From Streptomyces sp. NBC_01197 (GTDB lineage: Bacteria > Actinomycetota > Actinomycetes > Streptomycetales > Streptomycetaceae): a stretch of DNA of 64,000 bases. Both the position numbers and the translations under genes were made by a program. Numbering within the stretch: position 1 is the stretch's first letter; every line of letters begins with the position of its first letter. The notes beneath the pieces were generated by a model. That model was not told the DNA's origin. It worked only from the letters and a program-made list of their open reading frames with translations, and did not search any database. The stretch lies in NCBI RefSeq assembly GCF_036010505.1, contig NZ_CP108569.1:5385001-5449000 (forward strand). The letters are read 5' to 3'. Positions 14,586-40,812 of the stretch are shown piece by piece.

Positions 14586-15524
14586 ATGCCCGAGATCGTG
14601 AATGCTGGCCGAGACTGTTTCATTGACCTGCCGGAAGAGCTGATAGACGACCTGATCGATATGGGAAGAGCCTTCCCCGCTTGGAGCGTGGACGGCTCCT
14701 TCCTGTCGGCCTCCACGATCGTGCGGTACCGGACCAACCTGGGTTCGATACCGCTTTTCCCTGAAATCAGGGATGCTCTACTCGCCAAGCTGAACGTTGC
14801 AGCTGGCGGTTACGCCGTGGTGCGTCTGGGAGCCATCGTGCAGGCTCTGGGGGTCGGGGAGCAGTTCTTGCGCTTGGCGACGGCGATTCTTGCCGAAGTG
14901 GCGGTCCCTTTTCAGCCCTTCCGGCGATGGCCGCTGTGGAAGGAGATCGGGACCAATCTCAATGCGAATCCGGGACTGTCCACGGGGACGGGGTACAACG
15001 CATTCCACATGGACTTGGTCAACGTGACCCAGCCGCCGGACTACACGACGCTTCTGTGTGTCCGGCCCGACCCGCTCGGTGCCGGCGCGAGCATCCTTTC
15101 CGACGCTCGCGCGGCCGTATCGCGCTTGGCGCCGGCAAGCCGCACGCTCCTGTCCGAGGAGGCGTATAGCTACGGATCGTTCTTCGATCTGTCTGACGTC
15201 GGCAAGGAGTACAGCCCGTTCCCCGTCCTGGATGGGGAACGGGCCCACCTCGGATTCGTTCGGTTCACCGCCAAGATGCTCGTCGAGTCCGGACTCGGCG
15301 AGGAACACGCCCGTGCGGCCAGGGAACTCGCGGACCAGATGGTCGCCGGCCAGGTCTCCTTCACACTCCAGCGCGGTGACTTCTTGATCGTGAACCAGCA
15401 CCGCTGGGTCCACGGGCGCGAACCGCTCGGCGCCGGCCAGCAAGCTGTCGCACCCGAGGCCCGCCGCTTGCTGCTCCAGCTGTTTCTGCGCAGCGCAGAA
15501 GCCACCGGACCAGCTGCCTCGTAG
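14586..15524 (+). CDS. TauD/clavaminate-synthase-like 2OG-Fe(II) dioxygenase
   Basis: The 312-aa protein has the features of an Fe(II)/2-oxoglutarate oxygenase. The iron ligands appear as AFHMDLVN (H141, D143) and a distal His in NQHRWVHGREPLG (H272 or H276), with R278 as a likely 2OG ligand. A TFdA/TauD-like core lies between them. The substrate is unknown; relatives hydroxylate amino acids or sulfonates. ATG 14586 follows GGAGGACGTA. It precedes, on the opposite strand, a GT2 and nucleotide-sugar genes, so a role in small-molecule or glycan tailoring is possible. Confidence 0.75.
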   Translation: MPEIVNAGRDCFIDLPEELIDDLIDMGRAFPAWSVDGSFLSASTIVRYRTNLGSIPLFPEIRDALLAKLNVAAGGYAVVRLGAIVQALGVGEQFLRLATAILAEVAVPFQPFRRWPLWKEIGTNLNANPGLSTGTGYNAFHMDLVNVTQPPDYTTLLCVRPDPLGAGASILSDARAAVSRLAPASRTLLSEEAYSYGSFFDLSDVGKEYSPFPVLDGERAHLGFVRFTAKMLVESGLGEEHARAARELADQMVAGQVSFTLQRGDFLIVNQHRWVHGREPLGAGQQAVAPEARRLLLQLFLRSAEATGPAAS

Positions 15525-15560
15525 GCGGTGCGCGGGTCTCTGGCCAGGTTGTTGAGGGTC

Positions 15561-16334
15561 CTAGATCCGCGAGTTGCGCAGCGACTGGTACACCGCGCCG
15601 GCCAGCGCCCGCGTCGCCCGCGGAACCGACAGTCCCTCGTGCTCGCGGTACAGCTCCCAGTTGTACGGGACGAGCGACAGCTTGTTGGAGGACAGTGATC
15701 CCGCCTGGTGGGCCCTGTACACGGCGAGCGGCTCGGACAGACCCCGGGCATGAGCGCCATCGCGCATGATCGACAGCCACAGGGCGTAGTCCTGTCGCTT
15801 CCGCATCTCCGGCATCAGCCTCGTGCCCAGGACGTTGCGGTCGTACATGGCGGTCAGGGCCCCGATGTGGTCCTGGACCAGCATCGCGCGGTAGTCCACG
15901 TGTTCACGCGCGCGGACTACACGCCCGTTCGGGATGAAGTCGGTGCTCTCGCCGTCGTAATCGGCGTCCATCTTGAAATAGCTGGTGAACGTCAGGGGCG
16001 CACTACCAGCAGCCGCGAATGCGATTTGCCGCTCGGCCTTCTCCGGTAGCCACATGTCGTCGCTGTCGAGGAAGGCGATGTAGTCCCCCCGGGCCCGTTC
16101 GATGGCGAGGTTGCGTGCCCGGCCGGCACCGCCCCGTTCGGGTGCCAGTTCCGGCAGGACGCGCTTGTCCTGCTGGGCGAACTCCATGAGCAGGTCCATG
16201 GAGCCATCGGACGACTGGTCGTCGGTGATCAGCAGCTCCAGGTCGCTGTGGGTCTGCGTGAGCACCGACCGGATTGCTGGGCCGAGAGTGGCTGCCGAGT
16301 TGTACACGGGCATCACGACAGACACCAGGGGCAC
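15561..16334 (-). CDS. Family 2 glycosyltransferase
   Basis: The 257-aa protein has a canonical GT-A fold. The N-terminal strand is VSVVMPVYNSAATLGPAI, the acidic nucleotide-binding positions are in LLITDDQSSDGS, the metal-binding motif is FLDSDDMW, and there is a late RQDYALWL acceptor-side motif. It would transfer a sugar from a nucleotide donor to a glycan or lipid in the cytoplasm or at the membrane. It has no membrane helix. It is divergent from the nucleotide-sugar dehydrogenase gene, with 65 bp between starts. Confidence 0.88.
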   Translation of the reverse strand: MPLVSVVMPVYNSAATLGPAIRSVLTQTHSDLELLITDDQSSDGSMDLLMEFAQQDKRVLPELAPERGGAGRARNLAIERARGDYIAFLDSDDMWLPEKAERQIAFAAAGSAPLTFTSYFKMDADYDGESTDFIPNGRVVRAREHVDYRAMLVQDHIGALTAMYDRNVLGTRLMPEMRKRQDYALWLSIMRDGAHARGLSEPLAVYRAHQAGSLSSNKLSLVPYNWELYREHEGLSVPRATRALAGAVYQSLRNSRI

Positions 16335-16399
16335 AGTGCTTCTCCTTGCTCAGCCAGAACGACGGTCCATTCAAGCACTGCGATCGAGTAGGAGCTGCC

Positions 16400-17656
16400 A
16401 TGCATATTGTTATCGCTGGTCAGGGCTATGTGGGACTGCCGCTGGCCGTACGCGCCGCAGAGGTGGGCCACCGTGTCGTCGGCTACGACGTGGACCCGCA
16501 TCGCGTCCGTCAGCTTGCCGCTGGTGAGTCGTACGTGGAGGACGTGGCATCGGCGCGGCTCCGCGCCGTGCTGGATACCGGGGCCTACCGCGTGACCGAC
16601 GATGCCGACGCGCTGCCCGCGTTCGACCTCGCGGTTATCACCGTGCCGACCCCGCTGCGGGACGGGGTGCCCGACCTGACCTACGTCGAGGCCTGTGCCC
16701 ACACGCTCGGCGAGCACCTGCGCTCCGGCGCGACTGTGATCTTGGAGTCCACGACCTACCCCGGTACTACCGAGGAACTGTTGCTGCCGATCTTGGAGAA
16801 GACGTCCGGGCTGACTGCCGGTGCGGACTTCCACCTCGGCTTCAGCCCCGAGCGCATCGACCCGGGAAACAGGTTGTGGCCGTTCGAGAAGACACCCAAG
16901 GTGGTCTCCGGCATCGATGCCGCATCGCTTGACGCGGTCAAGGGCTTCTACGACAGCATGGTGGAAACCACGGTCCCGGTCTCCGGAACGCGAGTGGCCG
17001 AGCTGACCAAGCTGATCGAGAACACGTTCCGACACGTCAACATCGCGCTGGTCAACGAGATGGCGATGCTCGCCAGGCCGCTCGGCGTGAACCTATGGGA
17101 TGCGATCGACGCCGCCGCATCCAAGCCCTTCGGCTTCATGCGCTTCACCCCCGGTCCCGGCGTCGGAGGACACTGCCTTCCGATCGACCCATCGTTCTTC
17201 TCGTGGAAGGTGGAACGCGCGGCCGGGGTCCCGTTCCGGTTCGTGGAACTCGCCAACGACGTGAACGCCCACATGCCTGACTACGTGGTTCGGCGGCTCA
17301 TGGAGGCGTTCAACACGCGCCGTATGGCTGTCAGCGGATCTCGTGTATTACTGCTTGGGCTGGCCTACAAGCCCAACACCTCCGACGCACGCGAGTCGCC
17401 GTCGGGGCGGGTCGCTGAGCTATTGCTCAACCTCGGCGCCGAGGTGCGTGGCGCGGACCCGCACGTCGTAGACGACATCCGCACCGACAGACGCCTGACC
17501 CGGGTAGTAGCGACCGCGGAGGAGATCGCGGCATCCGACGCCGTCGTCCTGCTCACGGACCACACGGGATTCGACTACGAGACGGTCCTTGAGCACGCGC
17601 CGTACGTGCTCGACTGCCGCAACCGACTCTCCGGCGCCAACGTCGATGTGCTGTAA
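16400..17656 (+). CDS. Nucleotide-sugar 6-dehydrogenase (UDP-Glc/ManNAc DH family)
   Basis: The 418-aa protein oxidises a UDP-sugar to the uronic acid with two NAD+. The NAD-binding motif is MHIVIAGQGYVGLPLA, the catalytic lysine region KLIENTFRHVNIALVNE, the active-site Cys GPGVGGHCLPIDP, and the C-terminal domain begins VLLLGLAYKPNTSDARESP. Overall it resembles WecC/TuaD-type enzymes. ATG 16400 has AGGAGCTGCC upstream. The product could feed the divergent GT2. A partial RmlD-like gene overlaps its 3' end, suggesting a once larger sugar cluster. Confidence 0.88.
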   Translation: MHIVIAGQGYVGLPLAVRAAEVGHRVVGYDVDPHRVRQLAAGESYVEDVASARLRAVLDTGAYRVTDDADALPAFDLAVITVPTPLRDGVPDLTYVEACAHTLGEHLRSGATVILESTTYPGTTEELLLPILEKTSGLTAGADFHLGFSPERIDPGNRLWPFEKTPKVVSGIDAASLDAVKGFYDSMVETTVPVSGTRVAELTKLIENTFRHVNIALVNEMAMLARPLGVNLWDAIDAAASKPFGFMRFTPGPGVGGHCLPIDPSFFSWKVERAAGVPFRFVELANDVNAHMPDYVVRRLMEAFNTRRMAVSGSRVLLLGLAYKPNTSDARESPSGRVAELLLNLGAEVRGADPHVVDDIRTDRRLTRVVATAEEIAASDAVVLLTDHTGFDYETVLEHAPYVLDCRNRLSGANVDVL

Positions 17657-18170
17657 GCGACGCCACTGGAGAGCCGACCTCAGAGCGACCCTGCTCGCCG
17701 CACTACCGCCCACGCCCTGCAACACCCCCTTCGAGAGGATCGACAGGACCACTCTCATCATCGGCGGCAGTGGCTTTCTGGGGGCCGAACTGGTCAGGCA
17801 GGCGTGCGCGGCCGGCCGCCCTACAGCCGCGACGTATGCGACCAGGCCCGGCGACACCTCCCATGCCGTATGGAACCCGCTGGATTTGCGAGACCACGAT
17901 CGCCTGGACGCCCCGGCAGACGAAGTTCGCCCACGTCTCATCGTGAACACATCGAGCGGCGGGGTCGACTGGGCGGCCACGGCAAAAGGCCCCACCCACC
18001 TGGCGATGATCGCGGCCAAGAACCGAGTCCGCATGGTCCATGTGTCCACCGACGCCGTCTTCTCCGGCGCTGACATCAACTACAACGAGGCCGCCCTCCC
18101 GGACCCCAACACCCCGTACAGCGCAGCCAAAGCAGCAGCCGAGACCGGCATCCTCGCGGCGCCGTGCTAG
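17646..18170 (+). pseudogene. RmlD-like sugar reductase/epimerase, 3'-truncated
   Basis: The product has a Rossmann start (TLIIGGSGFLGAELVRQA) and a catalytic YxxxK (TPYSAAKAAAETG), as in RmlD-type dTDP-4-dehydrorhamnose reductases. Complete enzymes run to about 290 aa; this frame stops shortly after the YxxxK, losing the substrate-binding half. The stop touches the 3' end of the convergent ABC-3C ATPase gene, so the arrival of that cassette probably removed the rest. The first 45 residues before the Rossmann motif look like spurious extension. Confidence 0.75.
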
Positions 18171-19993
18171 TGCCTGGGGAAGAAGCCCGCTCTGCCGCTC
18201 GTCGTTCCCGTGAAGTGGTAGGTAGCGGCCTCGGAGAGCACCTTGGTAGGCGGGTCGCCGTTTTCGATGATTATGGCCTGGCCGGGGAAGGACAGCATGT
18301 CCTTGTAGAACCGGTCCACGACGGTGGAGGTCAGCTCCACATCGTCGATGTCGTCAGGCTCGGGGTCGCGATAGGTGACCACCGGGGAGTCCAGGACAAC
18401 GAAGCCGAGATGGTGCAGATCCCGATCCATGCAGAAACGAGCCAGCGCCGTAGTGAACGCCGAGTGCAGGACCGAGCGCATCCCCTTGCCACGCTCTATC
18501 CGCTTGCGGCCGCCGGCGCGGATTTCGGCGTAATACTGGTCGTATTCCGCGTGGTCGGCGGCCGGCACCTGCCAAGCGTCGAGAATCTGTTGGAGGATGG
18601 AGTCGAAATCACCCAATGTGGCGGTAGGGATGTGCTGAGCGGGGCGCGTCGTGGCGACGGCGCCTTCTCCGACAAGCCGGGACTTCTTGTCGTCCAGCTC
18701 GGCAATGCGGGCTTGCAACTCCAGTTCTCGCTCAACGACGGAGCGTTCCTCGACCAGGTCTTCGACGTCGGAGCGCAACGCGGCGATCCCCCCTTCCAGC
18801 TCCTCGATTACCTGATCCCATACCCCTATGTCGGATTGCCACTGCACCCTGCGGTTCATCAAAGCCGTCTGCTCACCATCCAGATCGGAGATGGTGGGCA
18901 GCAGGTCAGAGAGCAGTGTGGTGGTCTTGGCGGCTTCTGCTTCAACGGCAGTGTGCAGCTGTGTGGATTCTTCCAGGCGGTGGTTGGGCTGCTGGTGCTC
19001 GCGCTCAGCGCCGCAGAACGGGCAGGCCCCAATCTTGAAGTAGCCCAGGATGCTGCCCGCTTCGTTGACCATGGCCAGCCGTTCCAGGTCCGAACGGTAC
19101 TGCGCCTCCAGCAACTTGAAGCGCCGTAGCAGGTCGCTGACCTCGGTCAGCCGCTCATCGAGCGCGGCCAGCTGGCGGGCAGTTTCCATGCGGGCGTCGA
19201 CCGCTTCACGGTGAGACTCGTTGGTCTGGCGCAGCGGCGCAGACTGCTCGTCCAGCGCGGTACGGATCCGAATGTGCCGGTCGCGGAGCTGGCGCTCGTT
19301 CTCCTGCGTACGGAGTTTGGACGAGAGATCGAGGACTAGCTGGTCCAGCAGCTGTACCTGGCCTTTGTGGACGCGACGCTGCCCGGCGTTGGGGCCGGTG
19401 TCCACGGCCGGATCGCCTTCCCCAGTGACCAGGAACCGCATCACCGACAGCTCCGCAGTGCGCGTATTGGCCGTCCCTGTGCGCAGCACTGGGGGTACGT
19501 CGCCGACCATACGGTTTTCGGTGACAAGAGCCAGATGTAGCAGATCGGCCAGAGCCAGGGGGCGGGTGCCGCCGGCCTCGTTCTTGCGGATCAGGACCTC
19601 GTCCAGACCCAGCTCGCGCAGCATATGGATGGACAGGCTGTTGCGGCTGCGGACGTTATGGACCGCGGTCACGGACGCATCCGGCATCTCTGTCACGTAG
19701 GCACGCAGGTCCGCGTAGTAGAGGAAGATGCTGTTGCTGTCGGGAGCGCGCAGCAGGGTCAGTGGGCTGCCGTTCGGCATCAGCAGGCCCAGCAGGATCT
19801 GCGTGTAGCCCTCGCTCTCGGGGACCATCGCGAGGTCGGCTCCGCCCAGCATGTACTCGATCGACTTCACGATGAAGGACTTGCCAGTGTCGGAGGTGCC
19901 GTAAATGACGGTCAGCTCCGGGCCGAAAATGATCTGCGCCGGGGGACGGTCGGCCCCGCAGTAGGTCAGGTGGGTCAGTTGCAGTTCACTCAC
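18167..19993 (-). CDS. ABC-3C system SMC/Rad50-like ATPase
   Basis: The 608-aa protein is an ABC-type ATPase with coiled coils. Walker A is GTSDTGKS (residues 32-39). Two long coiled-coil arms (about 215-310 and 340-440) flank a CPFC zinc-hook-like motif (C324, C327). The C-terminal half has RGKGMRSVLHSAF and Walker B GFVVLDSP (D535). It is the third gene of a three-gene minus-strand operon with a winged-helix middle component and a nuclease-fold protein. Literature on ABC-three-component systems predicts that such ATPases sense invading nucleic acid and license the effector. It overlaps the middle-component gene by 8 bp. Confidence 0.88.
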   Translation of the reverse strand: MSELQLTHLTYCGADRPPAQIIFGPELTVIYGTSDTGKSFIVKSIEYMLGGADLAMVPESEGYTQILLGLLMPNGSPLTLLRAPDSNSIFLYYADLRAYVTEMPDASVTAVHNVRSRNSLSIHMLRELGLDEVLIRKNEAGGTRPLALADLLHLALVTENRMVGDVPPVLRTGTANTRTAELSVMRFLVTGEGDPAVDTGPNAGQRRVHKGQVQLLDQLVLDLSSKLRTQENERQLRDRHIRIRTALDEQSAPLRQTNESHREAVDARMETARQLAALDERLTEVSDLLRRFKLLEAQYRSDLERLAMVNEAGSILGYFKIGACPFCGAEREHQQPNHRLEESTQLHTAVEAEAAKTTTLLSDLLPTISDLDGEQTALMNRRVQWQSDIGVWDQVIEELEGGIAALRSDVEDLVEERSVVERELELQARIAELDDKKSRLVGEGAVATTRPAQHIPTATLGDFDSILQQILDAWQVPAADHAEYDQYYAEIRAGGRKRIERGKGMRSVLHSAFTTALARFCMDRDLHHLGFVVLDSPVVTYRDPEPDDIDDVELTSTVVDRFYKDMLSFPGQAIIIENGDPPTKVLSEAATYHFTGTTSGRAGFFPRH

Positions 19994-20447
19994 GGTGGCC
20001 CTCGCCGGGCGTGGATGCGAACAGGGAGCCGTTCACGAGCTCCGCAGTGGCCTCGCGTACGTCGATGCCAGGGGCCCATTGGTGCACGGCCCACTTGGCA
20101 CGCTCACGCAGCCGCCCCACATAGGGGGTTTCGAGGATGTCGACGAATGCGGGCCCACGGTCGGTCGCCCGGTAGACAAGACCCGTTTCGTCGGCTTCGG
20201 CGCCGGCGAGCCCGGCACGGATGAGTACGAGGAGCGCCTGCTCCAGCACGGTGCGCTTCATGCCCAGCTCTCCGGAGTGCCCGGGCAGCGAGGGGTGGAG
20301 GGAGGGCGGGCCGTCGTGGTCGCCGCTATGCAGGACGGCGTGGTCGAGGACGGCCAGCTGCGCCAGGTCGAGCGGCTGGGGATGGCTCTCGGCCAGCAGC
20401 ACCAGCGCCCGCACCCCGATCTCCAGTGGACTGTTGAGCGGATTCAT
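19986..20447 (-). CDS. ABC-3C system middle component
   Basis: The 153-aa protein matches the small middle component of ABC-three-component systems. It opens MNPLNSPLEIGVRALVLLAE, a hallmark N-terminal pattern, and follows with a winged-helix-like body (KRTVLEQALLVLIRAGLA) and a C-terminal helix. It overlaps the upstream effector gene by 4 bp and the ATPase gene by 8 bp, so all three are translationally coupled. It is thought to bridge the ATPase and effector. No catalytic residues are seen. Confidence 0.85.
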   Translation of the reverse strand: MNPLNSPLEIGVRALVLLAESHPQPLDLAQLAVLDHAVLHSGDHDGPPSLHPSLPGHSGELGMKRTVLEQALLVLIRAGLAGAEADETGLVYRATDRGPAFVDILETPYVGRLRERAKWAVHQWAPGIDVREATAELVNGSLFASTPGEGHRE

Positions 20448-21541
20448 GCGGCTCCCCCTTCCTCACACCATGTCAGTCGGTAATCGTTCGCCAGGTGATG
20501 GCATACCCCCATACGGTCCAGGGGCCGCACAAAACGAGTAAGAACTGTCTGTGTCAGCGCAACGCCCCCAGCCGCTTCCAGCACATCCTGCAACCGGTCC
20601 CAGCCGAGCTCGTAACGCTTGTCGCACACCTCTACCGCAACGGTGCAGACGTCGTCCATGACCGCATTGAAGTGTCCTTCGGGATAGGCGTCCCGGGCGA
20701 AGCGCCGCAAGGATTCGGCGCTGTAGAACGCCTCGCGCTGGCGCCGCATGTGCTTACTGGCCGTAGGGTGCTGCGCGACCAGCTCCAGCGTGTTCGCCGC
20801 CGACTTCCATCGCTCTGCATACACCTGCACCAGCTGCCGAACGTAACGCGCCTCCTCCGCGTCATGCTCGTCCGGGGGCGTCATGATCGCAGGGCGTTCG
20901 CGCTGCTCGTCGGGAAACCGCATCGTCCAGTACGGGGTGGTCTTGTGCTGCTCCAGCATTTGGTCCATGTCGATCGGCGAGAACATGGAAAAATCCGTCT
21001 GCTCGGCCAGCTTGGTCAATTCCTGGCGCTGATCGGCCGTCAACCGGGTGATGACCTCATCACTCGTTGACGCCAGCTCCGCCAGGAACTTCACACGGGT
21101 CTGTTCCGGCTTCGCCAGCGCATCGCGCAGGGTGCGGGCGAAGGCGGGGGCGACGAACACGTACCGGATGGGCCGAACGAAATGCCCCAGTACCGCTCCG
21201 GCGAACATCTTGCGGATCTCGCCGGCTGCTGTACTCCAGTTCAAGGCGCTCTTGTAGCGCTTGCACTGGTAGTTGTCCCACGGCCCTTCCAGTCCTTGCA
21301 CGCTGCGGTAGGCGGCCACGTCGATGCCGTGGTCCCCGGTGCCGCCTTGGCGCTCAACGCGTTCATAGTCCGGTTCGAGGGCTGGAACCCATTCCTTGAC
21401 GAACTCCTCGAACTCGTCCGGGTCGTACCCGAAGACGATCTTCTTGGGGCTCGGCATGTACGGGAACTGCATCGCCGGGCGCTGGAGTACCAGCGGCGGT
21501 TCAGCGGGACCGCCTTGTGGCGCACGCGTCTGGTCCGACAC
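20444..21541 (-). CDS. ABC-3C system effector with REase-like domain
   Basis: I place the start at GTG 21541, preceded by GGGGGGAAC, giving 365 aa; the longer frame adds unlikely residues. Residues 40-110 have a PD-(D/E)XK pattern: acidic helix DEFEEFVKEW, then GDHGIDVAAYR (D74) and YQCKRYK (Q92-x-K94). The rest is helical and ends in a C-terminal domain (LDRMGVCHHLANDYRLTW) that would contact the middle component. It is the first gene of the operon. The family suggests DNA cleavage on activation; nuclease activity is inference. Confidence 0.85.
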   Translation of the reverse strand: MSDQTRAPQGGPAEPPLVLQRPAMQFPYMPSPKKIVFGYDPDEFEEFVKEWVPALEPDYERVERQGGTGDHGIDVAAYRSVQGLEGPWDNYQCKRYKSALNWSTAAGEIRKMFAGAVLGHFVRPIRYVFVAPAFARTLRDALAKPEQTRVKFLAELASTSDEVITRLTADQRQELTKLAEQTDFSMFSPIDMDQMLEQHKTTPYWTMRFPDEQRERPAIMTPPDEHDAEEARYVRQLVQVYAERWKSAANTLELVAQHPTASKHMRRQREAFYSAESLRRFARDAYPEGHFNAVMDDVCTVAVEVCDKRYELGWDRLQDVLEAAGGVALTQTVLTRFVRPLDRMGVCHHLANDYRLTWCEEGGAA

Positions 21542-21956
21542 GTTCCCCCCTCGTGCAGCCCGGTCGGTTGCCGTGCAACGGCTGTGACTAGGGATATCAC
21601 TGATCGATCGTTCACAAAAGAGGTACCTTTGAGACACCGACGGTGACGGCGGAGCGATTCAACACACAACCCACGCGCAAATCAGGTCGGGAGCCAACGG
21701 CACCTCCGCCGCGGCGGGCAGGTGGTCTTGGAAGTCCCTGACGAAGCGGTGAACGACGCAGACGCGCCGAAACGGATCGATCTGCCGCTAGACGGCCGAC
21801 CTCATCCTTCGCCTGAGAGATCTGGGATGGGGTCATGAGGGCCGCGTTGCCATTGAAGATAGTCCACGCAGGTCAGCAGCCGTCGCTGGACTAACTTCGC
21901 TGTCAAAGGACATCAGAGAAGCTGAGCCATCAGAGACTCCCGCTACGCTCGAACGT
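21542..21956. other. Intergenic junction between cargo and phage tail-side genes
   Basis: These 415 bp hold the leader of the ABC-3C operon on the left and a possible coding remnant on the right. The plus-strand frame at 21,647-21,838 reads QVVLEVPDEAVNDADAPKRI and ends with TGA. It is compositionally coding-like but has no good start, so it may be the 3' end of a phage gene cut off when the cargo arrived. No clear IS end or attachment repeat was seen here. Confidence 0.4.
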
Positions 21957-31919: not shown

Positions 31920-33010
31920 TGTCGTACCGGTACATCACTGCGCGGGCACTGAGTGGCGACGTGCTGGCCTGGAATCTTCCCCTTCACGACGTGGAGTTCG
32001 GGCCCGCCCTTAGCGCCGCCGGCACCTTCACCGGCGCGGTCGCACCCCGACTTCAGAACCTGGTACGCACCCAGGTGGACGCCGGGGACACCTGGCTGTA
32101 CGTGGAGCGGGATGGCCGTCTCTTGTGGGGCGGGCTGTTGTGGCGGGCAATCGCGGAAGGCTCTGAGATGCGGGTGGAGGCGGCCGGCCCGGGCTCGTAC
32201 CCGCACCGCCGTTACGACCTGCACGGTCAGCTCAACGGACGAGGCCCGTACGTCAACGCCGACCCATGCACGGTGATCCGTGACGTCTGGCGCTACCTGC
32301 AAGAGCAACCCGACGGTGACCTCGGTGTCGTCGTGGACGCCACGGAGTCGCAGACGACCGTCGGCACACCGGCAGAGCCGTACCGTACCGACTGGTGGGA
32401 GGCGCCTCTGCTTGGCGACGTCATCGATGACATGACGGCCGTCGAGGGCGGCCCGGAGTGGACCGAGTCGCTGTCCTGGTCAGGCGAGGTACCCCGTCAC
32501 CGGATCCGTATCGGCTGGCCGAGGCTCGGCACCCGCAGGACGGACATCGCGTTCGAGACGGGGATCAACATCGTTTCCAACGTGCCGGTGGAGTACGACG
32601 CGGACCAGGCCGCCCAGGCCGTGATCGCGCTCGGCGCCGGTGAAGGGCGCAGCAGGCGCCGGGTCGTCGATGCTGTGCGCAACGGACGCTTGCGCCTGGA
32701 GTCACTCGTCGAAGCTCCCGCAGAGAAGGCGCAGGATCGACTCGCCGCGCGCGCCCGCACCGAGCGGGTCTCACGCCAGGTCGTCGGCGAAGTCACCGAG
32801 ATCGCTGTTCGGGATCACCCGGCTGCGCCCATCGGGTCGTGGCAGATCGGTGACGACGTGCGGGTGAGGGTGCACGACGAGTGGACGGACTATGACGCCT
32901 GGTCGCGCATCGTCTCGTACCAGATCAGCCCCGGATCCGAGGATGAGAGCGAGAGGGCAGTGCTCCAGATTCAGCGGGCCGACCGCTTCACGTATGGAGG
33001 GCAGGGGTGA
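31919..33010 (+). CDS. Minor tail protein, baseplate hub-like
   Basis: This 363-aa product has the style of actinophage tail-tip hub proteins: an N-terminal strand-rich part with WLYVERDGRLLWGGLLWRAI, a middle helical part (RRVVDAVRNGRLRLESLVE) and an OB-like end (WQIGDDVRVRVHDEWTDYDA). It starts within the ATG overlap of the previous stop and ends 3 bp into the next gene. It would bind the distal ring and close or open the tube. Confidence 0.72.
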   Translation: MSYRYITARALSGDVLAWNLPLHDVEFGPALSAAGTFTGAVAPRLQNLVRTQVDAGDTWLYVERDGRLLWGGLLWRAIAEGSEMRVEAAGPGSYPHRRYDLHGQLNGRGPYVNADPCTVIRDVWRYLQEQPDGDLGVVVDATESQTTVGTPAEPYRTDWWEAPLLGDVIDDMTAVEGGPEWTESLSWSGEVPRHRIRIGWPRLGTRRTDIAFETGINIVSNVPVEYDADQAAQAVIALGAGEGRSRRRVVDAVRNGRLRLESLVEAPAEKAQDRLAARARTERVSRQVVGEVTEIAVRDHPAAPIGSWQIGDDVRVRVHDEWTDYDAWSRIVSYQISPGSEDESERAVLQIQRADRFTYGGQG

Positions 33011-35133
33011 ACGCGGAGGTAGCGCGGCTGGCTGCTCGGGTTGCGGAGCTGGAACGGCGTCTTGCCGCGGCCTCGCGCACCTCACGGCTGGCGTACTCGA
33101 GCATCGAAAACGGTGCGATCGACGTGTACGACGAGGATGGGGGTCTGCGCGGCGCCATCGGGCAGCAGCCTGACGGCACGACCGGGGCTGTGGCAGTGAA
33201 CGGCCCGCCGCCACCGACGCCAAGCGCCCCGCTGGCGGAACCGGCGCTCGCAGGGTTGCGGGTCACGTGGGACGGCGGCTTCATCGACGCCTTGGCCCCG
33301 CCGCTCGACCTGACGCGCGTACAGGTCCACCTGTTGACCTCGGTGGACGCGGTGCCGGATGTCCGGTGGCCGGCGGCCACGATTGAGGCGGCGTCTGGGG
33401 CTTCTGTCACGATCGCCCTGTCTTCCTATACGGGCTTGTTCGTGCGGCTCGTCGCCGTCAACACCTCCGGCATTCCCGGACCGGCATCTGCCGCGGTGGC
33501 CGCACAGGCCCGCCAGGCTACGGGCCCCGACCTCGCCGCAGGATCGGTGGACCTCACGCGTACCACGGGCGCTCTCGCCGACTCGGCCCGCCGGACTTAT
33601 ACCGACAGCCTCGATGACCCGACCGCGTGGGCCGTCACCACGAAGGGACCTGGCGCCGAGTGGACGTACGAGTCGGGACTCGGAGACGCGGAGACGGGCA
33701 ACAGCGTCGGCCAGGCCGTCGGGCACATCCGGCTGCAAGGAACGAGCCCCATTCCGTACGACCCGACCGCTCTGTACCGAATCAGCGCGCGCGTGAGAGC
33801 TACGGTCCCGGGCGAGGGCGGCCTGGACACCCTGTACTTCGGAGTCATGGGCCTCGCCGCGGACGGCGTCACCATGGTCAACGCCACCGGCGCCGACGCG
33901 ACCGCATCGCAGTACTACGTGGGCGCTTCCAGGGTGGCGCTGCCCACCAGCAGCGGGTGGACGACGTTCGCCGGGTACCTGAAGGGCCGCGCCGATCCCA
34001 CCGGGAAGGGCAGCAGCGCGGAGGCCCACGACCCTCGCCAGCCAGCACTGGCGCACGACAAGGTGCGTTACATCACCCCGTATTTCCTGCTGAACTACGA
34101 GTCGAGATCCGCGACCTCAGCGGCGACCATGCAGGTTGATGCGCTCCAGATCGAAGCGATCCACACGGGTGCAGTGGGACCGGAGAACCTGGTCGCGGGA
34201 TCTGTAACCGCGACTGCGCTGTCGGCGGATGCCATCACCGGGAAAGTCGTCACTGGCGGCACAGTGCGGACGGGGACGAGCGGACCACGGCTCATCATGG
34301 CTCCCGAAGCGGCGGGATCAGGCGTGCCCGGAGTCGCGATGTACTCAGGACATCCGCAGGAAAGCGGCCCCGGCATGTTCAGCTCCAACACGGTGAGCGC
34401 GGGCGGCACGGTCGTACCGGAAGTGCGGATCGCTGCGCCGACGACGGACGACGGCCCAGCCCTCATGTGGCTGCGCTCACCGGCGCTGGGAAGCGGTGCT
34501 GGATTCCGGCTCGACACCAACTTCCGGAGGTCGTTCTGCTTCATTGACGCCATGGGCGGGACGGACAACAGCACCTCCGAGATCAAACTCTTCGCACAGA
34601 ACGGCACAGTCGGGCCCGCGTCGATACTCCTGTTGCGCGGCGACCAGGCGGCACTGAGTTCCGGTCTGGTCAAGCTGAACATCACACCTGACGGTATGAG
34701 CGCAACGGGCAGGGTGCAGTTCAACGGGGGAATCACCGTCGAGAAGGACGGCCTGGTCCACATGCGCGGAGGCGGCATCCTGGTGGACGGTTCTCCCTCC
34801 TGGACAAAGCTCTCGCTCAAGTCCGGTTTCACGCACGGCGACGGCGACGCCCGGTGGCGGGAGATCACCATCGCCGGGCAGCGATTCCTTCAGATGGCCG
34901 GAACGGTCAACGTGACGGCGTCGGGCGGCCTCACAGCCGACGCTGTTTTCGCGGCGCTCACGTCCTTCACTCCCTCCTACAGCGTGCCCGCTCCCGTGGG
35001 GCGCAACAACGCCGCCGGCGTAGCCGCAACCAGAATTTCGTGGGGCGTAGACGGCTCCTTCACCGTCTACAACACCACCGGCAGCAACGTTAAATGGTTC
35101 AGCCTGGAGTCCGTCCTCCTCTCCCTGGAGTGA
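33007..35133 (+). CDS. Tail fibre / receptor-binding minor tail protein
   Basis: The 708-aa protein is the last tail gene. It opens with a short coiled coil (VARLAARVAELERRLAAASR), then an FN3-like segment (residues 75-170) and a jelly-roll carbohydrate-binding-like segment (180-380). Next comes a linker VTATALSADAITGKVVTGGT of the kind preceding fibre shafts, and a C-terminal tip. This modular order fits a host-recognition fibre. GTG 33007 overlaps the hub gene. Receptor identity is not predictable. Confidence 0.78.
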   Translation: MNAEVARLAARVAELERRLAAASRTSRLAYSSIENGAIDVYDEDGGLRGAIGQQPDGTTGAVAVNGPPPPTPSAPLAEPALAGLRVTWDGGFIDALAPPLDLTRVQVHLLTSVDAVPDVRWPAATIEAASGASVTIALSSYTGLFVRLVAVNTSGIPGPASAAVAAQARQATGPDLAAGSVDLTRTTGALADSARRTYTDSLDDPTAWAVTTKGPGAEWTYESGLGDAETGNSVGQAVGHIRLQGTSPIPYDPTALYRISARVRATVPGEGGLDTLYFGVMGLAADGVTMVNATGADATASQYYVGASRVALPTSSGWTTFAGYLKGRADPTGKGSSAEAHDPRQPALAHDKVRYITPYFLLNYESRSATSAATMQVDALQIEAIHTGAVGPENLVAGSVTATALSADAITGKVVTGGTVRTGTSGPRLIMAPEAAGSGVPGVAMYSGHPQESGPGMFSSNTVSAGGTVVPEVRIAAPTTDDGPALMWLRSPALGSGAGFRLDTNFRRSFCFIDAMGGTDNSTSEIKLFAQNGTVGPASILLLRGDQAALSSGLVKLNITPDGMSATGRVQFNGGITVEKDGLVHMRGGGILVDGSPSWTKLSLKSGFTHGDGDARWREITIAGQRFLQMAGTVNVTASGGLTADAVFAALTSFTPSYSVPAPVGRNNAAGVAATRISWGVDGSFTVYNTTGSNVKWFSLESVLLSLE

Positions 35134-35484: not shown

Positions 35485-35568
35485 ATGGAGACTTCCAACG
35501 AGGCGCTTGTTGTCGTTGTGGAGAACGAGGGCGAGTCCCTCCTCTGCTTCGACACGGTTCCCGACTAG
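35485..35568 (+). CDS. 27-aa putative RiPP precursor peptide
   Basis: ATG 35485 follows ACGGGGGTGAAACAC, a good ribosome site eight bases upstream. The peptide is acidic, begins METSNEALVVVV, and ends LLCFDTVPD, with one Cys seven residues from the C-terminus. It is followed by a strong hairpin and then DUF6065, SagB-type dehydrogenase, MFS and GNAT genes, the pattern of a short ribosomal peptide gene ahead of its modification and export genes. An acidic leader with a short Cys/Thr/Asp core is plausible. I do not recognise the sequence, and it could be an unrelated small ORF. Confidence 0.55.
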   Translation: METSNEALVVVVENEGESLLCFDTVPD

Positions 35569-35578
35569 TTCGGGACCT

Positions 35579-35614
35579 CTAGTCGGCGCCACCGGTAAGG
35601 TGAGCGCCGACTAG
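35579..35614 (+). terminator. Hairpin/attenuator after the peptide gene
   Basis: CTAGTCGGCGC and GCGCCGACTAG form a perfect 11-bp stem with a 14-nt loop, 10 bp after the peptide stop. It is followed by CCCTTTATAAT rather than a long T-run, so partial termination or RNA stabilisation is likelier than full termination. Such hairpins often separate highly expressed precursor genes from modification genes. Confidence 0.6.
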
Positions 35615-35619
35615 CCCTT

Positions 35620-35625
35620 TATAAT
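35620..35625 (+). promoter_or_regulatory. Perfect TATAAT -10 box before DUF6065 gene
   Basis: TATAAT lies immediately after the hairpin and 32 bp before the DUF6065 start. A -35 match at 16-18 bp upstream is weak because the hairpin arm occupies that position. If active, the promoter would overlap the hairpin and let the enzyme genes be expressed independently of the peptide gene. Confidence 0.4.
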
Positions 35626-35656
35626 ACGACTAGCGGCGAATCGCCGAGCGGGAAAC

Positions 35657-36442
35657 ATGGATGAATTGGGCGACTGGGAATCTTTGCCGGATGTAGGCGA
35701 TCACTCCCTTTCTGCATATCGACTCCAGCGAGGCCCAGATATGCAGCTGGAGCCCGCTGGTCACGCGCGCGCCTGGATGGATGAGACATTCAAGCGAAAC
35801 GCGAACCGATGTCTCCCGCTGCTGATAGCGAATCAGGCTGGATGGTGGCTCCGTAACAGCCAGGAATTTTCGGTCATTTGGCGCGGTGGGCAGTCACCCG
35901 CAGATCTGAAAATTACCTACGAGGATGCCAGCCTTCCCGCGCCGGCGGAGAGCATATTCGGACATGGAATCGTATCCTTCAGGATTCCATATTTCTTCAG
36001 GACTTCCCCGGGGTGGAACCTCCTGGTGCGAGGCCCCGCGAACTTTCCTAAAGACGGTGTTAGTCCTCTTGAAGGGCTGATCGAGACCGACTGGACACCA
36101 GCCTCGTTCCTCATGAGTTGGCAGGTGACGCGCTCCGATGCGCGAATCTCTTTCGCGGCTGATGATCCCATTTGCATGGTCGTTCCTCAGCGCCGTCATC
36201 AATTGGAATCGTTCCGCCCGACACAGTCCTCTCTGGATCACATGCCGGATGATATTGAATATCAGGAGTGGCGGCGATCTCGGGATGAATTTCGCAAACG
36301 GGCCCAGATTCCAGGGACCCCCGAGTACGGCGCCCGGTGGACCCGGGACTACATGATCGGTAGGCACCCGGACGGCTCTCTCTTCGGGGAGCATCAAAGG
36401 CGCCTCCGCCTTCGTAATTTCGAGACCGAAAACCGGGACTAG
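35657..36442 (+). CDS. DUF6065-family protein
   Basis: The 261-aa protein matches my memory of DUF6065. The segments are LSAYRLQRGPDMQLEPAGHA, RAWMDETFKRNANRCLPLLI followed by ANQAGWW, IVSFRIPYFFRTSPGWNLLV, GPANFPKDGVSPLEGLIETDW and CMVVPQRRHQLESF. This family has no established biochemical role that I know of. Here it sits directly after a short peptide gene and before a SagB-type dehydrogenase, which suggests a peptide- or metabolite-modifying enzyme. ATG 35657 lacks a strong ribosome site but gives the expected N-terminus. The codon use is less GC-rich than the phage genes. Confidence 0.78.
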   Translation: MDELGDWESLPDVGDHSLSAYRLQRGPDMQLEPAGHARAWMDETFKRNANRCLPLLIANQAGWWLRNSQEFSVIWRGGQSPADLKITYEDASLPAPAESIFGHGIVSFRIPYFFRTSPGWNLLVRGPANFPKDGVSPLEGLIETDWTPASFLMSWQVTRSDARISFAADDPICMVVPQRRHQLESFRPTQSSLDHMPDDIEYQEWRRSRDEFRKRAQIPGTPEYGARWTRDYMIGRHPDGSLFGEHQRRLRLRNFETENRD

Positions 36443-36454
36443 GTAGCATTTATC

Positions 36455-37567
36455 ATGCAGGTGCGTGCAGTAAACCCTGTATTTGTGAGCATGGACGGTG
36501 CGGAAATATTCGCATCTTCCCCACTTGTCCCTAAGCGCGTCCGCCTCCACCCTAAGATCGCTGAACTGGTCATTTCGGCCCGAGAGTCGACTGACCTGGA
36601 TTTGTTGACCGGGGGAGACGAGCAGATTCGTCAAGCCGCCCTTAGCCTGCTTTCGCTCGGTTTCCTCACCGAAACGGACGGAGCCGACGCGGATGGAAAG
36701 GGAGAGACCGTTGGGGTCCCCAGTCCGTGGCGGCAGTGGGGCAACCTCGCGTGGCTCTTCCATACATCGATCCGTAATGCCCCGTTTGTGCGCGGCAGCG
36801 AGCACGAGATCCCCGAGTACTTTGAGCGGCTCGCGGAGCGCGGGGAGAAACCTGCCAACAGTAAAGCTCTTGCGGACGACGGTGAGATTGTCTTCCTGCC
36901 CCGAGTTTGGGCCGACATGAACGACAGTTTCAAGTCGGTTCTGGAAGGGCGAAGGACCCATCGCGACTTCAGTGATGAGCCCATCGCGATCGATGAATTC
37001 TCCTCGCTGCTCCATTACACATTCGGTCCGTTGAGATTCGTCGACGCTGGCAGCATGGGGGTGCTTCAGCTGCGTGCCAGCGCCTCAGGGGGAGCGCGGC
37101 ATGAAGTAGAGGCATAACTCGTGATATTCAACGTGACGGGACTGGTGCCTGGCGTCTATCGCTACGACGCCATCCGTCACGGTCTGATTCCTGTAGGTGA
37201 AGAGGTATCTCGCGCCGAGATTCAGCGGGTGATCCACGACCAGACCATTGCTGCGGGTGCTGCCTTCTGCGTCTTTACCACAGCGGTCGCCTCACGGATG
37301 GCTTGGAAGTATCCACACCCGAGGGCCTACAAGATACTTCTGCACAACGTCGGCCACCTGTCGCAGGTCTTCTCCATGACTGCGGCGGCACTCGGCCTCG
37401 GGGCATCTTTGACCGGGGCGTTCCGCGACGACGACGTCGAGAAAATCTGCCGTCTTGACCAGGCCGACGAGTTCCCGACGTTCTTCATGGCCTGCGGTGC
37501 ACCGCTCGTCCAGGGTGACGGAATGCCGCACCGCTACGTTGCGCCCGGCCGTTCCTCCAAGCAGTAG
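36455..37567 (+). pseudogene. SagB-type dehydrogenase with internal nonsense codon
   Basis: Two frames in the same register, 36455-37117 and 37118-37567, are separated by a single TAA at 37115-37117. Together they give a 370-codon SagB/nitroreductase-like enzyme. Its parts are an N-terminal winged-helix-like domain (VRLHPKIAELVISARE), the FMN-binding start LEGRRTHRDFSDEPIAIDEF, ASGGARHEVEA-stop-LVIFNVTGLVPGVYRYDA, and a C-terminal ALGLGASLTGAFRDDDVEK. The TAA sits where the family normally has Tyr in SGG..HP.E.Y. SagB enzymes oxidise azolines in RiPP pathways. A GTG at 37121 could start the second half. Alternatives are a sequencing error, stop read-through, or a true pseudogene. Confidence 0.8.
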
Positions 37568-37588
37568 AAGACCGAGAAAGAAGACGAC

Positions 37589-38863
37589 GTGGCCGCCGGC
37601 AAATACTCTCTCCTGCCGATGAAGCACGAGGCTTTCAAGAACGTCGCTGCGGGCCGCTTCATCAGCTTCCTGGGAAACGGGATTGCCCCGGTCGCCCTCG
37701 CGTTCGCGGTTCTGGACCTTACCGGCTCAGCAGCCCAGCTTGGTGCTTTGGTCGCCGTGCGTGCCCTAACCAGCACCATCGTCATGCTCTATGGCGGTGT
37801 ACTGGCGGACAGGATGCCACGCGCTCTCCTTATGCAAGGGTCGTCACTAGCGGCTGGGTGTGTCCAGGCTGTTGTGGGCCTCGCGCTCATCTATAGCTTC
37901 TGCTCAATGCCGCTGCTCTTTGTCCTCGCGTCCCTGAGCGGAGCACTTTCGGCACTGGCAATGCCGAGCAGTATGGCGGTCGTCCCCCAGACTGTGCCGA
38001 AGGATTTGCTGCCACAGGCCAATGCTTTGCTCCGCCTGTCGACGAACCTTGCCCTCGTTATCGGATCGTCTATCGGCGGAATTCTCGTGGCGGCCTGGGG
38101 TTCCGGCTGGGGACTGATCGTGGATGCTGCGACCTACGTGTTCGCCGCCTACCTGTTCAGTCGCGTGAAGACGACGGGGCAGGTCAAGCTGCCCAAGCGG
38201 GGGAAGCTGCTGTCGGACATGCGGGAAGGGTGGTCCGAGTTCGTCTCGCACACCTGGTTGTGGATCGTCGTTCTGCAAGCCACTGTCTGGCAGGCCGTGT
38301 GGGCGGGATCGATCCAGGTCCTCGGGCCCGTTATCGCCTTGCATGACATCGGTAAGGCGGCTTGGGGGCTTGTGCTCGCTTCCTACACCGCCGGCACCAT
38401 CGCAGGCGGCCTGGTCGCCCTGCGCTGGAGGCCTCAGCGGGGGGTGGCAACGGGCGTTGCAATGACGGCGGTCAGCGCGATCCTTCCACTTGCACTCGCA
38501 TTCAGCGCTCGCCCGGTGCTTCTCATGGCCGCAGGTTTCCTAGCGGGCCTCTCGATGGAGCAGGTCATGGTTGCCTCTGGGGCGGCTGTCCAAAGCACGA
38601 TCGCTCCGGATCGGCTGGCACGTGTGGCCTCGTTCCAAATCATCGGATCCTCTGCCGCCATCCCGGTAGGGCAGGCACTCGCCGGGCCTCTAGCGGACAA
38701 CATTGGGACGCGAGACCTTCTCGTCGTGGGTGGGCTAGTGATTGTCCTCGCGGCGACCCTCTCGGTCTCCAGCCGGAGTGTGCGGGAAGTGGGCGTTTCT
38801 ACCAACAGCCCGAAAGCACTTCCCGCCACCGAAAACCAGTCAGCTTCGGAGAAGACATCATGA
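37589..38863 (+). CDS. MFS transporter
   Basis: The 424-aa protein has about 12 hydrophobic segments. A cytoplasmic loop motif GGVLADRMPRALLM lies after the second helix, the usual MFS signature, and resembles EntS-type exporters. It would export a small product by proton antiport across the membrane. GTG 37589 is 21 bp after the SagB frame and the stop overlaps the GNAT start (ATGA), so it is co-expressed with the cassette. As the only transporter, it is the likely exporter of the cassette product. Confidence 0.9.
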   Translation: MAAGKYSLLPMKHEAFKNVAAGRFISFLGNGIAPVALAFAVLDLTGSAAQLGALVAVRALTSTIVMLYGGVLADRMPRALLMQGSSLAAGCVQAVVGLALIYSFCSMPLLFVLASLSGALSALAMPSSMAVVPQTVPKDLLPQANALLRLSTNLALVIGSSIGGILVAAWGSGWGLIVDAATYVFAAYLFSRVKTTGQVKLPKRGKLLSDMREGWSEFVSHTWLWIVVLQATVWQAVWAGSIQVLGPVIALHDIGKAAWGLVLASYTAGTIAGGLVALRWRPQRGVATGVAMTAVSAILPLALAFSARPVLLMAAGFLAGLSMEQVMVASGAAVQSTIAPDRLARVASFQIIGSSAAIPVGQALAGPLADNIGTRDLLVVGGLVIVLAATLSVSSRSVREVGVSTNSPKALPATENQSASEKTS

Positions 38864-39357
38864 GCAGCACCAGTGGACAGGTCGATCTGGTCCCAATGAC
38901 GCCTCAGGACTACGAGTCCTACGTCCCGTACGTCCTCGCGGACTACGCGTCCCGCACGTCTGGGGCAGGGGTGGTTTCGCGCGCGGACTCGGAAGCCCGC
39001 GCCCACCGAGAATTCACCAGGTTGCTCCCTCAAGGCCTCGACACCCCAGACAACACTCTCTGTGTGATCACCGTGGATGGAGAGGAACGACCTGTGGGGC
39101 GGCTCTGGTACGCGCTCAGAGGCGCAGGTGAGCAGCGCTACGCCATGATTCTCAATGTTGAGGTGGACGCCGAGTACCGCGGGCAGGGGTACGGAAGGTC
39201 CGTTATGCGGGCGTGCGCACAATCCGCCCGCGCGGAGGGAGCTCTCAGTCTGCGGATCAACCTGCTGGGGGAGGACATCCACAACAAGAAGCTCTATGAG
39301 AGCCTCGGGATGACCGAAATGAGTGTCCTGATGAACTGGGACATAGGCAAGGAGTAG
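38860..39357 (+). CDS. GNAT N-acetyltransferase
   Basis: The 165-aa protein has a GNAT fold. It shows RLWYALRGAGEQRYAMILNV, then the acetyl-CoA loop YRGQGYGRSVMRACAQSARA (R/Q-x-x-G-x-G/A) and LYESLGMTEMSVLMNWDI at the C-terminus. It would transfer an acetyl group from acetyl-CoA to an amine, and could modify the peptide product or protect the host from it. It overlaps the MFS gene by 4 bp and ends 62 bp before a strong terminator, closing the cassette. Confidence 0.88.
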   Translation: MSSTSGQVDLVPMTPQDYESYVPYVLADYASRTSGAGVVSRADSEARAHREFTRLLPQGLDTPDNTLCVITVDGEERPVGRLWYALRGAGEQRYAMILNVEVDAEYRGQGYGRSVMRACAQSARAEGALSLRINLLGEDIHNKKLYESLGMTEMSVLMNWDIGKE

Positions 39358-39418
39358 CGGGGGCGATCCAGAGTTGGTCCGTAGACCGAGTTGGGCGAAC
39401 CCCCTCAGTCAGATTGCA

Positions 39419-39446
39419 GGGCCCACCCGGATTGCCAGGTGGGCCC
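39419..39446 (+). terminator. Terminator after the peptide cassette
   Basis: GGGCCCACC and GGTGGGCCC form a perfect 9-bp GC stem with a 10-nt loop, 62 bp after the GNAT stop. There is no long T-run, as usual in Streptomyces. It separates the cassette from the lysis genes. Confidence 0.75.
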
Positions 39447-39587
39447 TCTGCGTGTGCTGGGAGGCCTGATCAGGGGGGTGTGTGTACGCCGGGATCTGCA
39501 TGCAGTGTTCCGCGAGGGCCGTTGGGTGTCGGTGGGGCCGCAGTAGAGTGAGTGCGGCGCGGGGCCGCTGCTTGTTGAGGAGTGCCA

Positions 39588-39951: not shown

Positions 39952-40812
39952 ATGACCGATCCCTGGCTGCCCGGGGCGGAGCGGCATCCGCTCAGAGACA
40001 CCGCACCCACCGACAAGCAGTACCCGCCTAAGGTGCTCTGGCACATCACCTGGGACAAGAACGCCACAGCCTCCAAGCCCGCCGACCTTGTGCCGTTCAG
40101 CAACCTCGTGCGGTACTTCACGGGCGGCGGCTCTTCGGCGGCCCCGCATCTGCTCTGGGACCCTTTCAGCGGCAGGATCGCCCAGTTCTATCCGGCGACC
40201 AGCCGCTCCAAGTCGGTAGTCGACCTGGCCGGTGGCACCCGCACCAACCGGGCCGGAAAGGTCGTCATCCAGGTGGAGACCCTGTTCTTTCCACACTGCC
40301 GTGTCGGCGGCAAGACATACGCCACAGTCGCTGACACCCCGTGCAAGGGCCTGGATAAGATCCTTGCGTGGACCGGTGGCTGGGGCGTGCCGGACACCTG
40401 GCCCATGGGCAAGCCGACCTGGAAGGCCAACCGCAGCGAGCGCGTGTGGGAGACCAAGGGAGGCCACTACGGCCATGGCCAGGCCCCCGAGAACGGTCAC
40501 ACGGACCCCGGCCCGATGCCGAACTGGCCGAGCAAGAGCCCTCAGGCGCCGAAGCCCAAACCGAAACCGACACCGCACCCATTTCCTGGCGCGTCTGCCT
40601 TCGGACCGGGGAAGAGCAACGCCCACATCCTGTTGCTCGGCCAGCAGCTCGTAAGGAAGGGGTTCGGGTCCCACTACAAGGTCGGGCCGTCGAAGGACTG
40701 GGGCGAGGCCGACCGTCTCAACGTCGCGGCCTTCCAGCACCACCAGGGCTGGAAGGGATCGGACGCTGACGGCTACCCCGGTCCTGAGACGTGGCGCCGG
40801 CTGTTCAAGTAA
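39952..40812 (+). CDS. Endolysin, amidase-like with peptidoglycan-binding domain
   Basis: The 286-aa protein has an N-terminal domain resembling amidase folds (VLWHITWDKNATASKPADLV, with H31, and GKVVIQVETLFFP). After a Pro/Lys linker (APKPKPKPTPHPF) comes a C-terminal peptidoglycan-binding repeat, AHILLLGQQLVRKGFGSHYK to WGEADRLNVAAFQHHQGWKG and DGYPGPETWRRLFK. It would cut the cell wall at lysis; the bond cleaved is not certain. It has no signal peptide, so it needs the adjacent holin-like protein. ATG 39952 is 43 bp after the previous stop. Confidence 0.85.
   Translation: MTDPWLPGAERHPLRDTAPTDKQYPPKVLWHITWDKNATASKPADLVPFSNLVRYFTGGGSSAAPHLLWDPFSGRIAQFYPATSRSKSVVDLAGGTRTNRAGKVVIQVETLFFPHCRVGGKTYATVADTPCKGLDKILAWTGGWGVPDTWPMGKPTWKANRSERVWETKGGHYGHGQAPENGHTDPGPMPNWPSKSPQAPKPKPKPTPHPFPGASAFGPGKSNAHILLLGQQLVRKGFGSHYKVGPSKDWGEADRLNVAAFQHHQGWKGSDADGYPGPETWRRLFK

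What the first reader, a model, noticed from the sequence alone, without database searches (positions are those of the whole stretch)
35485..39357. Possible new peptide natural-product cassette carried between tail and lysis genes
A 27-aa ORF with good ribosome site (METSNEALVVVV...LLCFDTVPD), a hairpin, DUF6065, SagB-type dehydrogenase, MFS exporter and GNAT enzyme form a compact same-strand set of lower GC, bounded by a terminator. SagB enzymes normally oxidise azolines made by YcaO cyclases, but no YcaO is present. DUF6065 has no known activity, so this may be a RiPP class with a different first step. Location in phage late genes suggests a moron.
Basis: partly seen in the sequence, partly recalled or inferred. 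Interest (0 to 1): 0.78.

Follow-up and report, generated by a model that had tools for sequence, protein, structure and literature searches.

The report
Short-peptide gene cassette in a prophage
A virus dormant in a Streptomyces-like genome carries a small gene set that looks built to make, chemically alter and export a very short peptide; the tiny peptide gene is conserved in relatives, although one enzyme gene here is interrupted by a stop.

Summary
The 27-aa ORF (35485-35568), hairpin, DUF6065, SagB, MFS and GNAT genes lie on one strand between phage tail and endolysin genes. SagB is split by an in-frame TAA. No YcaO match in the genome. The short ORF is real: another genome has the same peptide (20 of 27 residues) and hairpin, intact SagB, MFS, GNAT and a 3' remnant of DUF6065. 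Same-genus relatives of this SagB have a short ORF (18-34 aa) upstream at 15 of 20 places under two criteria; for 14 of these places it is 10 of 14 against 2.3% of random windows. The dehydrogenase is ThcOx-like with one N-terminal clamp-like domain. Partner enzymes vary: DUF6065, JmjC, radical SAM plus methyltransferase, methyltransferase plus carbamoyltransferase. DUF6065 lies within 5 kb of RiPP-type genes at 6 of 11 actinobacterial loci, this one included, but its pairing with SagB was seen only here, plus the remnant. SagB-like genes with predicted precursors and ATP-grasp enzymes are in print (PMC8939145). Best reading: a mobile, YcaO-free RiPP-like pathway, possibly inactive in this copy. 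No product or chemistry is shown.

The parts
35485..35568 (+). 27-aa precursor-like peptide METSNEALVVVVENEGESLLCFDTVPD
   Evidence: homologue in the L063 genome (20 of 27 residues; 5 synonymous and 7 non-synonymous codon changes; dN/dS 0.31), conserved upstream GGGGGTGAAA, leader-like segment shared with L041/L062 and L189
35580..35613 (+). hairpin between the peptide and the enzyme genes; inferred attenuator or partial terminator
   Evidence: z -4.5; same hairpin in L063 (z -3.3) with a paired change seen by eye
35657..36442 (+). DUF6065 protein (PF19541), 261 aa
   Evidence: E 7e-79; model, pLDDT 82.8; dUTPase-like fold
36455..37117 (+). SagB/ThcOx-like dehydrogenase, N-terminal piece (220 aa), ends at in-frame TAA 37115-37117
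   Evidence: intact relatives exist
37121..37567 (+). SagB/ThcOx-like dehydrogenase, C-terminal piece (148 aa, GTG start, same frame)
   Evidence: TIGR03605 80 bits (cut-off 78.4); dN/dS 0.108 against L063
37589..38863 (+). MFS exporter-like protein
   Evidence: PF07690; 81% identical in L063
38860..39357 (+). GNAT acetyltransferase (ATGA overlap with MFS); inferred self-protection or tailoring
   Evidence: PF00583; 74% identical in L063; of 22 SagB neighbourhood loci only L063 has it by tblastn at 1e-3
39416..39451 (+). GC-rich hairpin after the cassette, weak terminator candidate
   Evidence: z -1.8; not listed
33007..35133 (+). phage tail protein upstream of the cassette
   Evidence: phrog_5911 E 7e-8 (weak); synteny
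39952..40812 (+). endolysin downstream of the cassette
   Evidence: phrog_17214 E 4e-76

Best explanation
A mobile, YcaO-free RiPP-like biosynthetic cassette carried as prophage cargo. Shown: a conserved very short peptide gene, a stable hairpin, DUF6065, a ThcOx/SagB-family dehydrogenase (interrupted here), an MFS protein and a GNAT, on one strand. Inferred: the acidic N-terminal segment (VVE-EG) is a leader bound as a strand by the peptide-clamp/RRE-like domain at the start of the dehydrogenase. DUF6065 modifies the C-terminal core (LLCFDTVPD) or helps position it, and the FMN dehydrogenase then oxidises the core (Calpha-Cbeta desaturation, or oxidation of whatever DUF6065 makes). The product is trimmed by host proteases and exported by the MFS protein; the GNAT protects the producer or caps the product. 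The hairpin keeps peptide transcript above enzyme transcript. In this strain the dehydrogenase is either two reinitiated pieces or dead.
Against: SagB has an in-frame stop. Intact DUF6065-SagB pairing seen once in 392 genomes, and L063 has lost most of DUF6065. No RiPP gene was recognised near DUF6065 at 5 of 11 actinobacterial loci (not all neighbours annotated), nor, by eye, at the 6 of 32 non-actinobacterial loci that I read. An MFS relative is near SagB at only 7 of 21 places by tblastn at 1e-3 (L189 and L191 are one place). Two SagB places in G352 have a YcaO near: one adjacent, one about 13.5 kb from L062. No protease gene recognised in the cassette. Five of 20 places lack a short ORF by my criteria. 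No expression, mass or activity data.
Confidence: 0.66

Rival explanations
1. The peptide-SagB system is a real RiPP-like pathway, but DUF6065 is a passenger with an unrelated role.
For: No DUF6065 match at any of 22 other SagB neighbourhood loci, nor in the genomes of the same-genus ones. The family is large (1851 proteins at E<=0.001), and the 6 non-actinobacterial loci read look like housekeeping contexts (by eye).
Against: DUF6065 lies inside the operon here and was in the ancestor of the L063 cassette; it is within 5 kb of RiPP-type genes at 5 of the 10 other actinobacterial loci.
Confidence: 0.3
2. The short ORF is a regulatory leader peptide whose translation controls the hairpin, not a precursor.
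For: A strong hairpin follows it directly; the ORF is short.
Against: Tandem copies with their own ribosome sites, a shared N-terminal segment with changing C-termini, fewer non-synonymous than synonymous changes per site (dN/dS 0.31, only 27 codons), and the clamp-like domain of the dehydrogenase.
Confidence: 0.12
3. The cassette is a decaying remnant in this strain and makes nothing (compatible with the best explanation for the family).
For: In-frame stop in SagB. The nearest relative is broken in another way, lacking most of DUF6065.
Against: The piece after the stop shows no relaxed constraint against L063 (dN/dS 0.108, against 0.122 before the stop and 0.103 for the MFS gene); a GTG lies one codon after the stop; the other genes are open.
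Confidence: 0.45
4. SagB works on a small molecule, as in nocobactin-type siderophore loci, and the short ORF is incidental.
For: A SagB-type dehydrogenase accompanies some nocobactin clusters (PMC7413640, passages).
Against: No NRPS gene in the cassette; short ORFs recur before SagB; a peptide-maturase-like radical SAM accompanies the L189 SagB.
Confidence: 0.07

Closest known systems
Cyanobactin oxidase ThcOx / SagB-family azoline dehydrogenases
   Different: No YcaO match in this genome; one clamp-like domain rather than two; 18-34 aa precursors
ATP-grasp 'branch 6' loci with SagB-like nitroreductase and predicted precursors (PMC8939145, passages)
   Same: Predicted precursors without known leader motifs beside a SagB-like enzyme; radical SAM and other partners; predicted to lie possibly outside known classes. 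L111 of this study has an ATP-grasp gene, a short ORF and SagB
   Different: No ATP-grasp gene in the cassette of this window; DUF6065, JmjC and the acidic VVE-EG peptides are not in the passages I saw; whether its precursor clusters overlap mine was not tested
[quoted passage not shown]
   Same: SagB-type dehydrogenase and a small peptide gene
   Different: The YcaO that makes azolines is missing
RRE-JmjC proteins with bacterial relatives in RiPP-like contexts (PMC12710340, passages)
   Same: JmjC genes beside the SagB and peptides of L064-L067
   Different: The passages I saw do not name SagB as partner of those JmjC proteins
NCBIfam TIGR04511 putative peptide maturation dehydrogenase
   Same: Highest-scoring NCBIfam model for P0122 (123 bits) and three other members tested
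   Different: All below its cut-off of 240 bits
Cyclodipeptide oxidase AlbA (nitroreductase family)
   Different: Aligned only over residues 151-365; acts on cyclodipeptides
dUTPase fold
   Different: No Pfam dUTPase hit at E<=1; profile comparison not significant (weak test)

Membership tests
RiPP pathway | Conserved small peptide gene beside peptide-modifying enzyme genes | tested here: met
   By sequence only:
RiPP pathway | Leader recognised by the enzymes, core modified | tested here: inconclusive
   Shared N-terminal segment and differing C-termini and clamp-like domain fit; no binding or modification tested
RiPP pathway | Modified, cleaved product demonstrated | not testable with these tools
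   No mass or expression data
LAP/TOMM | YcaO cyclodehydratase in the cluster | tested here: not met
   No PF02624 match at E<=0.001 in the 99.96% complete genome
SagB/ThcOx dehydrogenase | TIGR03605 domain above cut-off and ThcOx-like fold | tested here: met
SagB/ThcOx dehydrogenase | One uninterrupted enzyme in this strain | tested here: not met
   In-frame TAA 37115-37117
TIGR04511 | Score above 240 bits | tested here: not met
   32.8 and 84.8 bits for the two pieces; P0122 123.4 bits
RRE / peptide clamp | bbb-aaa winged-helix domain that binds the leader | tested here: inconclusive
   Secondary structure of the model fits; the region aligns with ThcOx from its residue 115, within its second clamp domain; binding not tested
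DUF6065 (PF19541) | Profile match above gathering score | tested here: met
   265 bits, cut-off 26.6
dUTPase | PF00692 sequence match | tested here: not met
   Only PF19541 at E<=1; fold similarity only
Prophage moron | Cargo in phage late genes, absent from related phages | tested here: met
   10 related prophages share the tail-lysin order; none of 67 fetched viral loci has the cassette proteins by tblastn at 1e-3
Prophage moron | Own promoter and terminator | tested here: inconclusive
   No sigma-70-like promoter found; terminator weak
Graspetide-like ATP-grasp pathway (branch 6) | ATP-grasp ligase gene in the cluster | tested here: not met
   No ATP-grasp match among the cassette proteins

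The most novel reading that the evidence does not exclude
A new RiPP class: precursors of only 18-34 residues whose N-terminal segment docks on a clamp domain fused to a ThcOx-like dehydrogenase, mostly without YcaO. The first-step enzyme is exchangeable (DUF6065 of dUTPase-like fold, JmjC oxygenase, radical SAM with methyltransferase, methyltransferase with carbamoyltransferase, ATP-grasp). DUF6065 would be a general peptide-tailoring enzyme, also used beside lasso-like, lanthipeptide-like and radical SAM clusters, and the class moves on prophages and plasmids.
Probability: 0.35. Interest if true: 0.78.

Novelty: new variant of a known kind. Interest (0 to 1): 0.57.

Why it matters
It would separate SagB-type oxidation from YcaO chemistry, give peptide-linked contexts in which to look for the activity of DUF6065 (1851 relatives; no activity known to me), and point to very short precursors that annotation can miss: the short ORF of the one named record examined is not in its gene table (that table is incomplete). 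The substrates are 18-34 aa, so tests with synthetic peptides are cheap.

Tried and rejected
hhalign of DUF6065 against 13 dUTPases of 13 genomes gave no support (Prob 2.1%). One of the 13 extracted sequences was a wrong frame, and the script stopped before its other comparisons and control, so the test is weak. The window SagB, MFS and GNAT against the 33 DUF6065 loci and five more: no hit at 1e-3. Class-wide this SagB was in 2 of 296 genomes at 1e-50, own genome included; relatives of G352: only G352 itself of 61. Phage records: no DUF6065, no DNA match to the cassette, one partial SagB match. Viral contigs, pattern scans: one distant DUF6065, one weak partial SagB. NCBIfam: no family for 7 of 8 short peptides; the eighth had a sub-threshold FxLD lanthipeptide match, E 0.12. 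PADLOC: nothing for the five cassette proteins. Rfam: nothing at gathering scores. Literature: 0 papers hold DUF6065. Searches gave listings (one listed none). I read passages of five papers, and PMC8939145 does describe SagB-like genes with predicted precursors and ATP-grasp enzymes.

Rows dropped. The filter also listed ORFs in L051, L056, L059 and L061 that I did not count, for position, strand or lack of resemblance. The criterion counts one doubtful case (L115); four places fail it (L113, L116, L120, L121). L116 has a fitting 23-aa ORF without the required ribosome site, and L121 lies beside a YcaO. L043/L064 has only a 48-aa candidate about 1.8 kb upstream, not counted.
Full report
What is there. 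The window is G000:C1:5385001-5449000 of a 7.7-Mb genome, Streptomyces-like by the names of close relatives of its proteins (the genome itself is unnamed). Between a phage tail gene (33007-35133) and an endolysin gene (39952-40812) lies a one-strand set: a 27-aa ORF at 35485-35568, a stable hairpin, DUF6065, a SagB-family dehydrogenase, an MFS protein and a GNAT. Their GC is 0.58-0.63 against 0.67 for the window. The dehydrogenase is interrupted by an in-frame TAA at 37115-37117; a second ORF in the same frame begins with GTG at 37121. A profile search found no YcaO in the genome at E<=0.001.

The short ORF is real. A second genome, G179 (by its contig length the genome of P0124, Streptomyces sp. 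NBC_00464; an inference), has SagB without a stop, MFS and GNAT in the same order, 71/83%, 81% and 74% identical, and before them a 27-aa ORF, MEATNETLVAVVENEGDSLLCFDDIPD. The peptides agree at 20 of 27 residues. The genes differ by 5 synonymous and 7 non-synonymous codons of 28, stop included; dN/dS is 0.31 on 27 codons. The hairpin after the stop codon is kept in both, z -4.5 and -3.3, with a paired change. About 65 bases of the 3' end of DUF6065 remain before SagB in that genome (alignment score 56; the best of 2000 random stretches scored 25), so the ancestral cassette had DUF6065 and that copy lost most of it.

A family of short peptides before SagB. A profile of this SagB (A2) matched 21 places in 19 of 392 same-genus genomes at E<=1e-40, own genome included. 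Of the 6 closer non-window places, 5 have a short acidic ORF with a ribosome site by the filter (L041, L042, L045, L046, L047; not L043). Of the 14 others, 10 have an ATG ORF of 17-36 aa with a ribosome site in the 450 bases upstream, against 121 of 5195 random windows of the same loci (2.3%). That control belongs to the second criterion only. Examples are MKKMDIAAKPVEGRSIKIHFQR, MRRIEMKHRIAIRADRPRAGEGSTWNWTWAYRQA and MREIEIKPVPVKREERRTGGLLYK. L066 and L067 have two and three copies of an 18-aa peptide, MDIVIIEDREVVAHHPSL or nearly so, each with its own ribosome site. The named plasmid of Streptomyces sp. NBC_01281 (L189) has a 33-aa ORF, MEHIEQTQVADEQIEVVEFEGESLTMLDLNGNC (my reading, translated), then radical SAM, methyltransferase, SagB and MFS genes. 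Six acidic peptides align on a VVE/IVE/IIE segment and, the closest ones aside, differ after it.

Partners differ. L064, L065, L066 and L067 have JmjC-domain genes, L062 a methyltransferase and a carbamoyltransferase, L189 a radical SAM protein closest to peptide maturases but below their cut-offs, and L111 an ATP-grasp gene. By tblastn at 1e-3 with the window proteins, of 22 SagB neighbourhood loci (L189 and L191 being the same place, so 21 places), none has DUF6065, 7 places have an MFS relative and one, L063, the GNAT. YcaO: 10 of 18 of these genomes have no match, one only a match below the cut-off, and 7 have matches above it. In G352 one YcaO is adjacent to the second SagB (L121) and one is about 13.5 kb from L062; by the coordinates the others are on other contigs or at least about 120 kb away.

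Phage context. Ten related prophages (L122-L131, endolysin 63-79% identical) keep tail, small gene and endolysin in order (for L122, L127 and L128 the printed rows begin within the tail genes). Between tail and small gene 5 of 10 (L122, L124, L125, L127, L128) hold extra ORFs of 120 aa or more by a simple ORF caller, some with defence-like domains. None of 67 fetched viral loci encodes the cassette proteins by tblastn at 1e-3.

State of this copy. The part of SagB after the stop shows dN/dS 0.108 against G179, similar to the part before (0.122) and to MFS (0.103), so decay is recent or the piece is still used. I cannot tell which.

In print. PMC8939145 (passages) reports, for one branch of ATP-grasp enzymes, predicted precursors without known leader motifs next to a SagB-like nitroreductase, with radical SAM and also YcaO partners at other loci, and predicts pathways possibly outside graspetides. 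L111 here fits that picture. PMC12710340 (passages) notes JmjC proteins in RiPP-like contexts. In PMC10783134 (passages) SagB-like genes are discussed mainly together with YcaO. None of the passages I saw mentions DUF6065 or the acidic peptides. I saw no supplements.

Verdict. Its 'DUF6065-SagB class' is too narrow: the recurrent unit is short peptide plus clamp-dehydrogenase, and DUF6065 is one partner among several. Nothing here shows a product.

Noticed in passing
L122-L131, stretch before locus position about 9600: The stretch between tail and lysis genes is a variable cargo site in related prophages; L122 and L128 carry AAA-domain proteins, and L122 and L124 carry proteins resembling SAVED/HNH defence effectors.
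   Followed up: partly
window 9573-21637: A second non-phage-looking stretch between head and tail genes: APH-family protein, TauD-type oxygenase, family 2 glycosyltransferase, UDP-glucose-dehydrogenase-like gene, and an ABC-3C CTD6/Mrr-type protein.
   Followed up: partly
L099, L101, L102: DUF6065 lies with asparagine synthase, PqqD-like and lasso-like precursor ORFs, e.g. MRDYSAPQLTIVGSLERLTAQ....
   Followed up: partly
L066:8015-8168 and L067:7603-7859: Tandem 18-aa peptides ending HHPSL or HHPSK, each with its own ribosome site, before SagB and JmjC genes.
   Followed up: partly
L114:4611-4715 and L118:4244-4348, in loci turned so that SagB is on +: 34-aa ORFs ending WNWTWAYRQA before SagB; Trp-rich ends unlike the acidic peptides.
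   Followed up: no
L121 (G352:C10): A SagB relative with a YcaO gene next to it, unlike the other places of the group.
   Followed up: no
L040: One viral contig holds a distant DUF6065, with a second weaker match on the same stretch.
   Followed up: no
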